From Xanthomonas sp. DAR 35659 (lineage in GTDB: Bacteria > Pseudomonadota > Gammaproteobacteria > Xanthomonadales > Xanthomonadaceae): a stretch of 64,000 bases of DNA. The position numbers were made by a program, and so were the translations under genes. Positions 51,524 to 52,902 of the stretch are shown here, in pieces. Every line of letters starts with the position of its first letter. Position 1 is the first letter of the stretch. The DNA lies in assembly GCF_041242975.1 (NCBI RefSeq), contig NZ_CP162488.1, positions 3,710,001 to 3,774,000 of the forward strand. The letters are read 5' to 3'. Under the pieces are notes generated by a model. That model ran no database searches and was not told the origin of the DNA. It saw nothing but the letters and a program-made list of their open reading frames with translations.

Positions 51524-51641
51524 GGAACCTCTAACAACCTGCTTTCGCCACAATCAAGCCAGATGCAGTTTTCCCTGTAGGAGCGGCTTTAGCCGCGACG
51601 AGGCGTTCCCGGGAAAGCCCGTCGCGGCTAAAGCCGCTCCT
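51524..51641. repeat. Left 118 bp of a composite palindromic repeat interrupted by IS110
   Basis: Begins GGAACCTCTAACAACC and runs through the REP-like palindrome (TGTAGGAGCGGCTTTAGCC at 51571 onward) to AGCCGCTCCT (51632-51641). It matches, in inverse orientation, the intact copy at 60693-60842. The missing 32 bases of this copy are found after the insertion element at 52871-52902; 118 plus 32 equals the 150 bp of the intact copy. Confidence 0.9.
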
Positions 51642-51644
51642 TGT

Positions 51645-51845
51645 ATCTGGACATGAGGCCCACGTGGCCTTATGTCTTCCGACTGATCATCGGAGCAGTG
51701 CGGGAAGCCCAGTCGCTCCTAAAGCCACGAGCTTGCATTGTAGATTGGCTCCCGCATTGCATATGCTGGCCCATCGGTGTCCGTACGGTATCCAGAGTCC
51801 GCCGCAGGCGTGAACTCGCATCCACAAGGCAGGACCGGGCGCAGC
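51645..51845 (+). ncRNA. Candidate IS110 bridge RNA (target- and donor-binding loops)
   Basis: Three structures follow one another. (1) A 5' hairpin 51651-51675 (10 bp, one G-U). (2) A target loop closed by 51695-51709 with 51747-51760. Inside it, AGTCGCTCCT (51711-51720) equals the left target AGCCGCTCCT except for one change that gives a U-G pair, and TTGTAG (51738-51743) pairs with CTACAG across the right junction; AAGC/GCTT (51722-51734) forms a hairpin between them. (3) A donor loop in which ACGGTATC (51785-51792) equals the element's right end and ACAAG (51824-51828) pairs with CTTGT at its left end, with the hairpin GAGT..ACTC between. Exact RNA ends are not visible. Confidence 0.75.
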
Positions 51846-51881
51846 GGTGATCGTGTTCACCCTACGATGGAGGAATTCCCC

Positions 51882-52853
51882 ATGTCCCCAGTCGTCGGTA
51901 TCGACGTCGCCAAACACCGTTTCGACCTGGCCATCGACCTGGCCAACGGCAAGTACCGCACCAAGGCCAAGCTTTCCAACGATCCGAAGGGGTTCCAGGC
52001 CCTACGGACGTGGCTGCAGAGCCATGCGCAGGCGGACAGCTGGATCGTGATGGAAGCCACCGGCACCTACCACGAGGCCCTGGCTGAGTTCGTGCACGCC
52101 TTGGGCTACCGCGTATGCGTCCTCAACCCGGCGCAGACGGCGCTGTATGCCCGCAGCCAGCTGACTCGGGTCAAGACCGATCGCAGCGATGCCAAGCTGA
52201 TCGCCAGCTACGGCCTGCGCCATGCGTCGCAATTGCGGCCGTGGCAGCCCGATCCGCCGGCGCTCAAGCACCTCAAGGCGCTGGTGCGTCGGCGCGAGGA
52301 CCTGCTGCAGATGCTGCAGATGGAGCGCAACCGCCTGGACGTCGCCGCGCCGGTGGTGCGCGCCTCGCTGCTAGAGACTATCGGCCAGCTGCAAGCGAAC
52401 ATCGCCCAGATCGAACGGGCCATCGACGACCAGATCGACCAGGATCCTACCCTGCGCGGGCAGCGCGAGCTGCTGGTCAGCATCGACGACATCGCCGAGA
52501 GGAGCGCGGCGCTGTTGCTGGCCGAGCTCGGCGACGTGGAGCGCTTCTCCCAGGCCTCGGCGGTGACCGCCTTCGCCGGGTTGAATCCACGGCTGCAGGA
52601 GTCCGGCAAGCGCAAGGGGCAGGCCTGCATCTCCCGTACCGGCTCCCCACGCCTGCGCGCCGGCCTGTTCCTGCCGGCCTTGGTCGCCATGACCCACAAC
52701 CCGGTCGTGCGTGCGCTGAAACAACGCCTGCGCGAACGCGGCAAGGCCAACAAGCAGATCATCTGCGCCGCCATGCGCAAGCTGCTGCATATCGCCTACG
52801 GCGTGCTCAAATCGCGCACGCCCTTCGACCCTCAAAAGGCCCTTGCCTGTTAG
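51882..52853 (+). CDS. IS110-family transposase (DEDD recombinase)
   Basis: 323 residues, full length. The N-terminal RuvC-like domain has VVGIDVAKHRFDLA (aspartate), WIVMEATGTYHE (glutamate) and VKTDRSDAKLIASYG (aspartates). The C-terminal Tnp domain has VTAFAGLNPRLQESGKRKGQACISRTGSPRLRAGLF with the serine typical of this family. GGAGG precedes ATG 51882 and ATG 51867 is a less likely start. No frameshift or stop is seen, so the element may be active. It would use the upstream RNA to choose donor and target sites. Confidence 0.95.
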   Translation: MSPVVGIDVAKHRFDLAIDLANGKYRTKAKLSNDPKGFQALRTWLQSHAQADSWIVMEATGTYHEALAEFVHALGYRVCVLNPAQTALYARSQLTRVKTDRSDAKLIASYGLRHASQLRPWQPDPPALKHLKALVRRREDLLQMLQMERNRLDVAAPVVRASLLETIGQLQANIAQIERAIDDQIDQDPTLRGQRELLVSIDDIAERSAALLLAELGDVERFSQASAVTAFAGLNPRLQESGKRKGQACISRTGSPRLRAGLFLPALVAMTHNPVVRALKQRLRERGKANKQIICAAMRKLLHIAYGVLKSRTPFDPQKALAC

Positions 52854-52870
52854 GGGGGAAGACGGTATCT

Positions 52871-52902
52871 ACAGGACACTTTCCGAAGTTACTAGAGGTG
52901 CC
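52871..52902. repeat. Right 32 bp of the interrupted composite repeat
   Basis: ACAGGACACTTTCCGAAG followed by TTACTAGAGGTGCC resumes the composite repeat that stops at 51641. Its end AGAGGTGCC is the inverted complement of the repeat's outer arm (51524-51532 with one substitution), as at 60691-60701/60834-60844. The remaining bases to the next gene (52903-53046) show no feature. Confidence 0.88.

What the first reader, a model, noticed from the sequence alone, without database searches (positions are those of the whole stretch)
51645..51845. Bridge-RNA candidate whose guides match the actual insertion site and both ends of the IS110 element
The non-coding left end folds into a 5' hairpin and two internal loops. 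Four short segments sit where a bridge RNA needs guides: AGTCGCTCCT matches the left target (9 of 10, the change giving a U-G pair), TTGTAG pairs with CTACAG over the right junction, ACGGTATC copies the right end of the element, and ACAAG pairs with CTTGT at the left end. Each pair of guides is separated by a small hairpin. Bridge RNAs are established for IS621 and relatives; this one in a xanthomonad, aimed at its REP-like palindrome, appears to be readable directly from sequence.
Basis: partly seen in the sequence, partly recalled or inferred. Interest (0 to 1): 0.93.

Follow-up and report, generated by a model that had tools for sequence, protein, structure and literature searches.

The report
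REP-targeting IS110 element with bridge RNA
A small jumping gene in a Xanthomonas chromosome carries a predicted RNA whose four short guide stretches match the place it jumped into and its own two ends, so it is a convincing new example of the recently described bridge-RNA-guided elements rather than a new kind of system.

Summary
Window 51640-52870 is an IS110-group element (1,229 bp, one core counted) with a CT core, inserted in one arm of a REP palindrome. Its left end (about 51649-51844) folds into two 5' hairpins, a target-binding loop and a donor-binding loop; the four guides sit where IS621's do, within 1 nt. All four matches in order occurred in 0 of 20,000 shuffles of the left end. 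In 46 of 47 distinct left-end/target pairs the 9-nt left target matched best at the proposed guide slot; over 19 distinct targets agreement is 8.5 of 9 against 5.7 when re-paired (0 of 20,000). The other three guides also change with their partners in some divergent relatives. A covariance model from 23 left ends finds 7 of 7 held-out relatives with a left end, and 14 of 14 copies of a second IS110 lineage (26-30% identical) in this genome, which uses the same REP 3 bp away. So: a new member of a known kind (IS621-type bridge RNA). Additions: a U at guide position 2, found in every undamaged copy of the genus examined, that can read two REP subfamilies; a copy whose left target is guide-coding DNA; guides that follow host palindromes. 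Transcript and activity were not tested.

The parts
51577..51599 (.). other arm of the REP palindrome GTAGGAGCGGCTTTAGCCGCGAC
   Evidence: sequence; the same arrangement was measured on another copy, L001,
51621..51641 (+). interrupted REP arm GTCGCGGCTAAAGCCGCTCCT; left target LT = 51633-51641 including core CT 51640-51641
   Evidence: the same site in 5 of 5 full copies in this genome
51640..51646 (+). core CT plus right donor RD (CTTGTAT)
51649..51844 (+). predicted bridge RNA, about 196 nt (5' end inferred from promoter spacing, 3' end from the end of the donor-loop stem)
   Evidence: model R1 match 51647-51844, 179.5 bits (the window's sequence is in the model); folds
51650..51676 (+). 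5' hairpin 1
   Evidence: 52.0% of cells paired on the MAFFT alignment, but seen in 20 of 23 single folds (by eye; not in L034, L039, L060)
51678..51694 (+). 5' hairpin 2, highly conserved (TCCGA..TCGGA)
   Evidence: 98.3% of cells paired
51695..51760 (+). target-binding loop (stem, LTG, small hairpin, RTG)
   Evidence: stem paired in 57.0-70.5% of cells
51711..51720 (+). left target guide AGUCGCUCCU (9-nt core of the guide 51712-51720)
51722..51734 (+). small hairpin between LTG and RTG
   Evidence: 97.8% of cells paired; one pair GC:12 / AU:11 among 23 sequences
51738..51743 (+). right target guide UUGUAG (pairs with CTACAG 52869-52874)
51766..51844 (+). donor-binding loop
   Evidence: outer stem 72.7%, inner stem 95.7% of cells paired
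51785..51792 (+). left donor guide ACGGUAUC
51795..51817 (+). small hairpin between LDG and RDG
   Evidence: 100% and 97.3% of cells paired in its two helices
51820..51828 (+). right donor guide AU-(CC)-ACAAG, pairs discontiguously with CTTGTAT 51640-51646
   Evidence: sequence; same layout as the IS621 RDG (passages of PMC11208158)
51882..52853 (+). IS110-group recombinase, 323 aa; GxxPxxxxSG serine motif (GLNPRLQESG)
52843..52848 (+). -35-like TTGCCT; in the circle it lies 17 nt from TATCTT formed across the RE-LE junction
   Evidence: 8 of 12 consensus positions; no shuffled control was run
52862..52870 (+). left donor LD ACGGTATCT with core CT 52869-52870
52869..52874 (+). core plus right target RT (CTACAG)

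Best explanation
It is an IS621-type (IS110 group) insertion sequence. Excision as a circle joins the right end to the left end and builds a promoter (TTGCCT-17-TATCTT) that drives a roughly 196-nt RNA from the left end. The RNA binds the recombinase. Its first loop pairs with both strands of the REP arm GCCGCTC-CT-ACAG, its second loop with both strands of the circle junction ACGGTAT-CT-TGTAT. The recombinase exchanges strands at the shared CT, inserting the circle in the REP. Shown here by sequence: element, core, guides, conserved fold, guide-target and guide-donor covariation, repeated insertion at the same site. Inferred: circle, transcript, RNA binding, strand exchange.
For: Recombinase: Pfam DEDD_Tnp_IS110 113 bits and Transposase_20 67.9 bits; NCBIfam 'IS110 family RNA-guided transposase' 229.9 bits against cut-off 140; solved IS621 (E 1.8e-62) and ISCro4 (E 1.3e-63) transposases. 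Five of 5 full copies in the genome sit at GCCGCTC-CT-ACAG; in 20 genomes of the genus 63 left junctions ending CGCTCCT lie in 8 genomes (the pattern itself requires CGCTCCT), 58 GCCGCTCCT and 5 GTCGCTCCT. LTG: best match at one slot in 46 of 47; permutation 0 of 20,000. RTG: the four core-proximal bases pair by Watson-Crick rules in 44 of 46 (read by eye) and change with the site in L118 (CTCTC/GAGAG), L119 (CTGAC/GTCAG) and L060 (CTAT/ATAG). LDG: 8 of 8 in 45 of 46, including partners ACAGTATC (L114, L115, L122) and ATGGTATC (L123). RDG: CTTAT/ATAAG (L114, L115) and CTCGT/ACGAG (L119) (by eye). Structure: 128 double-change cells against 58.1 shuffled, 0 of 500 reaching; slid versions at most 72. 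Model R1 finds 7 of 7 relatives that it was not built on and that have a left end (L116-L120, L122, L123) at E 8.7e-22 to 2.8e-13.
Against: No RNA or activity data. One site (L037) matches its guide 6 of 9. The fifth RT position does not pair strictly: the 5-nt RT match at the RTG slot is present in 29 of 46 (counted by eye). Hairpin 1 and the target-loop stem pair in only 52.0-70.5% of cells on the sequence-based alignment and the outer donor stem in 72.7%, perhaps through misalignment of variable stems; one of the five covariation measures (further pair types, 77 against 72.1) is reached by 48 of 500 shuffles. Single minimum-energy folds do not all show the plan: L034 lacks it, L039 and L060 show part of it, and the donor loop is rearranged in L042, L053 and L054 (by eye). 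The structure was drawn from the window's own sequence, which favours it on the paired-cell count.
Confidence: 0.96

Rival explanations
1. The recombinase alone recognises the REP palindrome; the left-end structure is a regulatory leader or small RNA that controls recombinase expression (as proposed for ISPpu9), and the matches are remnants of targets copied in passing.
For: REP palindromes are favoured by several transposase families (passages of PMC1525189); small RNAs were thought to regulate ISPpu9 (cited in PMC11208160).
Against: One slot in the RNA tracks 19 distinct targets and the other three guides track their partners in several relatives; similar recombinases (L030 to L035, 62-65% identical to the query) use different targets, each matching its own guide 9 of 9.
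Confidence: 0.03
2. The segments are chance matches in a GC-rich, hairpin-rich left end.
For: ACAAG alone matches in 19,864 of 20,000 shuffles.
Against: Four ordered matches in 0 of 20,000 shuffles; conservation and covariation across relatives.
Confidence: 0.005
3. It is a seekRNA-type IS1111 element in which the guide RNA lies downstream of the gene.
For: Same superfamily; ISPa11 of that group also targets REPs (passages of PMC11187229).
Against: The long non-coding end is upstream (242 nt with the core) and only 15 nt separate the stop codon from the right core; the bottom-strand guide precedes the top-strand guide, the IS110 order given in PMC11187229.
Confidence: 0.005

Closest known systems
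IS621 of E. coli and its 177-nt bridge RNA (PMC11208160, PMC11208158)
   Same: Upstream RNA, two internal loops, order LTG-RTG-LDG-RDG; offsets from LTG start: RTG +28 to +31 against +27 to +30, LDG +73 to +80 in both, RDG AU +108/109 against +107/108; RDG with two unpaired bases; CT core; promoter across RE-LE; REP target.
   Different: Different REP and LTG; two 5' hairpins and a longer predicted RNA (about 196 against 177 nt); recombinase a clear but not close homologue (214.7 bits).
ISPpu9 and ISPpu10 of Pseudomonas putida KT2440 (PMC1525189)
   Same: Two IS110 elements of one genome, not highly similar, both in the host's REPs; ISPpu10 is among the elements with a drawn bridge RNA in PMC11208160 (legend passage).
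   Different: Those two insert at exactly the same position; here the two lineages use CT cores 3 bp apart. Their sequences were not compared with the window's.
ISCro4 recombinase (PDB 9t56)
   Same: Best solved relative by sequence (E 1.3e-63).
   Different: Guides and target not compared here.
seekRNA elements (IS1111 and ISEc21; PMC11187229)
   Same: RNA-guided DEDD transposases; ISPa11 also hits REPs.
   Different: In IS1111 members the RNA is downstream and the guide order reversed.

Membership tests
IS110 group, IS621-type | DEDD RuvC N-terminal domain plus serine C-terminal domain | tested here: met
   GxxPxxxxSG motif read in the sequence.
IS110 group, IS621-type | Long non-coding left end upstream of the gene, short right end | tested here: met
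   242 nt from core (included) to ATG; 15 nt from stop to core.
IS110 group, IS621-type | CT core shared by target and donor | tested here: met
   GCTC-CT-TGTA and GTAT-CT-ACAG.
IS110 group, IS621-type | Left-end RNA with two internal loops holding LTG, RTG, LDG, RDG that covary with target and donor | tested here: met
IS110 group, IS621-type | Promoter reconstituted across the circular RE-LE junction | tested here: inconclusive
   TTGCNN-17 nt-TATCTT is the best site in 26 of 30 distinct junctions (another register in L039, L041, L049, L060); a consensus match without a shuffled control, activity not tested.
IS110 group, IS621-type | RNA is transcribed and binds the recombinase | not testable with these tools
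   Needs small RNA sequencing and a binding assay.
IS110 group, IS621-type | Circular intermediate and RNA-directed recombination | not testable with these tools
   Needs a recombination assay.
IS1111 / seekRNA type | Long non-coding region downstream of the gene | tested here: not met
   15 nt from stop to right core.
IS1111 / seekRNA type | Sub-terminal inverted repeats of 7-17 bp | not tested
   No dedicated search was made.

The most novel reading that the evidence does not exclude
The U at LTG position 2, present in all 43 junctions of the genus with a readable guide (of 46 examined) although it wobbles against most targets, works as a degenerate letter: one guide reads both REP subfamilies (AGCCGCTCCT through U.G, AGTCGCTCCT through U-A). 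Because guide DNA equals left target plus core, the RNA gene is itself a near-target, spared only by the bases after the core; copy L062, whose left target is another LTG-coding stretch, is such an event.
Probability: 0.2. Interest if true: 0.55.

Novelty: new member of a known kind. Interest (0 to 1): 0.4.

Why it matters
It shows that an IS621-type bridge RNA can be read from one genome and checked against relatives, and it gives a clade (40-100% recombinase identity) in which the target guide has been rewritten many times to follow host palindromes while the donor guides stay nearly fixed: a natural series for learning targeting rules. Two distantly related IS110 lineages aimed at one REP 3 bp apart give a natural test of competition for a target.

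Tried and rejected
Rfam: no family. RTG position 12 as evidence of selective targeting: rejected, because its base follows what the host's REPs offer (CTACA:CTACG after GCCGCTC: G000 433:13, G271 357:2, G238 155:151, G006 131:237); the insertions show no clear excess over supply (compared by eye, no test run). Preference for the T-type REP (AGTCGCTCCT): 4 of 62 junctions (L062 left out) against 48 T-type and 2,730 C-type empty sites in the 8 carrier genomes. Unstratified Fisher P 0.026, or 0.095 with the shared relic L080/L081 counted once; stratified by genome 0.019, 0.082, and 0.22 with that relic left out: not established. No junction has A or G at that place (63 less 58 less 5), but only 8 such empty sites exist in the carriers, so this says little. 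L062 as proof of RNA-guided self-insertion: not established; the 83-bp left-end duplication could equally come from slippage, since LTG DNA and left target share CGCTCCT. Avoidance of a matching RT after the LTG: position 11 is not C in any of the 19 segments printed, but the small hairpin explains that as well. Handshake guides (by eye): the TBL pair AU fits the donor, the DBL pair GC fits the target at position 7 only, and L050 breaks it; not counted as evidence. Self-targeting of bridge RNAs in print: one search, listing only.

Rows dropped: L006 and L059 (no left end) and L121 (contig begins at the gene) from the guide counts; L116 was left out by hand because I saw no left junction, though the model later found its RNA; L120 has no right end; L062 left out of the permutation. 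Identical left-end/target pairs were collapsed from 69 to 47 and to 19 distinct targets; the slide began at base 31 of each left end. For L118 and L119 the slot was placed by their own RT match. For the alignment I used 23 of 27 prepared left ends; the 4 most divergent were kept out for the held-out test. The inverted-repeat count covers 18 of the 19 targets (L122's flank is too short); its control is a single-base shuffle. No structure prediction was run.

Full report
What is there. Window 51640-52870 is one IS110-group insertion sequence of 1,229 bp (counting one core). Its left junction reads GCCGCTC-CT-TGTATC and its right junction ACGGTAT-CT-ACAG, so target and donor share a CT core. The gene (51882-52853, 323 aa) has both IS110 Pfam domains, passes NCBIfam's IS110 RNA-guided transposase cut-off and matches the solved IS621 and ISCro4 proteins. 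It interrupts one arm of a REP palindrome whose other arm is at 51577-51599. The genome is 5.4 Mb in one contig; five full copies and one 5'-truncated copy are present, the five full ones in the same REP position.

The RNA. The stretch 51645-51845 folds at -87 kcal/mol, z -3.34, into two 5' hairpins, a target-binding loop and a donor-binding loop. The guides lie at the same offsets as in IS621 within one nucleotide (IS621 positions from passages of PMC11208158). The right donor guide repeats IS621's peculiarity: AU, two unpaired bases, then the core-reading bases (AU-CC-ACAAG against CTTGTAT). In 20,000 dinucleotide shuffles of the left end the four matches in order never occurred; singly they are not rare (273, 3,537, 1,204 and 19,864).

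Covariation with target and donor. Relatives came from 32 loci of named genomes, from 297 genomes of the family (9 with a match at E 1e-60, the own genome included) and from 369 genomes of the class (11 with a match, the own included). Element ends were set by conserved end motifs, not by guide matches. Sliding the 9-nt left target over each left end, the best match fell at the LTG slot in 46 of 47 distinct pairs; the miss is L037. With one row per distinct target (19), mean agreement is 8.47 of 9 against 5.65 for re-paired rows, 0 of 20,000 permutations reaching it. The right target guide pairs by Watson-Crick rules at the four core-proximal positions in 44 of 46 (L056 has a U.G there, L036 a mismatch) and changes with the site in L118, L119 and L060; the 5-nt match holds in 29 of 46 (read). 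The left donor guide equals the right end 8 of 8 in 45 of 46 (L117 7 of 8), through three right-end variants. The right donor guide follows two variants of the left end in L114, L115 and L119. In L030, L032, L034, L048, L049 and L052 it reads GCAAG instead of ACAAG against CTTGT, a G.T at the place where passages of PMC11208158 report a non-canonical G-T pair in IS621.

Structure. On 23 left ends (A1) a hand-placed structure of 52 pairs is paired in 76.0% of cells, with 128 double-change cells against 58.1 in shuffles (0 of 500 as high) and at most 72 when slid; one measure, further pair types, is reached by 48 of 500 shuffles. The two small hairpins, hairpin 2 and the inner donor stem pair in 95.7-100%; hairpin 1 and the target stem in 52.0-70.5%, the outer donor stem in 72.7%. 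Single folds disagree with the plan in L034 and partly in L039, L060, L042, L053 and L054 (by eye). A covariance model (R1) finds L116-L120, L122 and L123, not used to build it, at E 8.7e-22 to 2.8e-13, and 14 of 14 copies of a second IS110 lineage in the same genome at E 3.7e-7 to 4.1e-5 (E-values of this model are rough). It found nothing in L006 and L121, which have no left end.

Expression. Joining right end to left end gives TTGCNN, 17 nt, TATCTT as the best site in 26 of 30 distinct junctions (L039, L041, L049 and L060 were given another register), with the -35 inside the last codons of the recombinase gene. No shuffled control was run. This fits the published promoter across the circle junction (PMC11208160 section 5). 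Whether it works was not tested.

Second lineage at the same REP. The 14 IS110 copies of 26-30% protein identity (L007-L020) insert at AAGCCG-CT-CCTACA: the right junction CTCCTACA is in 14 of 14, the left flank AAGCCGCT in 13 and AAACCGCT in 1. That is the same REP, core 3 bp upstream. All 14 left ends contain GTAGGAG, complementary to CTCCTAC; at the place of the left guide 8 have TAAGCCGC and 6 TTAGCCGC, so the left guide match is poorer in the 6. Two IS110 elements in one host's REPs have precedent in ISPpu9 and ISPpu10, which share one exact position (passages of PMC1525189).

Palindromes as targets. Of 18 distinct targets tested, 14 have an inverted copy (8 or 9 of 9) of the 9 nt before the core within 120 nt upstream, against 0.4 expected from single-base shuffles; L032, L118, L119 and L120 do not. 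So this clade re-aims mainly at palindromic repeats of whatever host it is in, by rewriting the LTG and leaving CTAC and the donor guides almost constant.

The wobble base. Of 63 left junctions found in 20 genomes of the genus I held 46; the guide slot was read in 41 by script and in 2 more by eye (L110, the outer piece of L062), and all 43 have AGTCGCTCCT; the other 3 (L080, L081, L095) are damaged and have no slot. Among the 63, 58 are GCCGCTCCT and 5 GTCGCTCCT; some are relics or pieces rather than full elements. Of the 5, one is L062, two (L080, L081) are the same damaged relic in two genomes, and two (L078, L082) have both element ends and lie in REPs of the AGTCGCTCCT kind (their genes were not checked). 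U can pair with both. Enrichment over site supply is not established (stratified P 0.019 to 0.22 depending on the relic).

A guide used as target. In L062/L079/L083, one place in G006, an 83-bp piece of left end ending exactly at the LTG precedes an element with both ends. Insertion into another copy's LTG followed by homologous loss, or slippage between the matching stretches, would both give this.

Literature. I read sections 5, 6, 7, 8 and 12 and passages of PMC11208160, and passages only of PMC11208158, PMC1525189 and PMC11187229. Searches 'bridge RNA + IS110 + REP', 'bridge RNA, IS110, self-targeting', 'Xanthomonas + IS110 + repetitive extragenic palindromic', 'seekRNA, IS1111, target site' and 'bridge recombinase, ISCro4' listed no paper that I recognised from title or abstract start as describing this element; I saw only listings of the other papers, so that is not proof that none exists.

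Verdict. The mechanism is established elsewhere, so this is a new, well-supported member of a known kind; the open points worth following are the degenerate guide letter and the guide DNA as its own target.

Noticed in passing
L007-L020 (own genome; flanks): A second IS110 lineage, 26-30% identical, 14 copies, inserted in the same REP with its CT core 3 bp upstream; left ends match the bridge RNA model and contain guide-like stretches (right guide in 14 of 14, better left guide in 8 of 14).
   Followed up: partly
L062 / L079 / L083 (G006:C1:3586600-3590200): Copy preceded by an 83-bp duplicate of its own left end ending at the LTG, so that its left target is LTG-coding DNA.
   Followed up: partly
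L080, L081 (G281, G291): Damaged left-end relic at the same REP (AGTCGCTCCT type) in two genomes, without guides and with no right end found.
   Followed up: partly
L095 (G281): Another damaged left end: intact junction GCCGCTCCT-TGTATCTGGAC but no guide slot behind it.
   Followed up: no
L006 (G000:C1:1442918-1443184): 5'-truncated copy of the element with an intact right end and CTACAAGG behind it.
   Followed up: no
G111: This genome of the genus has 109 AAGTCGCTCCTAC sites against 294 AAGCCGCTCCTAC, the most T-type sites of the 20 genomes searched (next 27), and no left junction of the element by the pattern.
   Followed up: no
L119: Distant relative whose target and donor ends differ from the usual pattern (RT CTGAC, RD CTCGT) with right target and right donor guides changed to match; left target guide 8 of 9.
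   Followed up: partly
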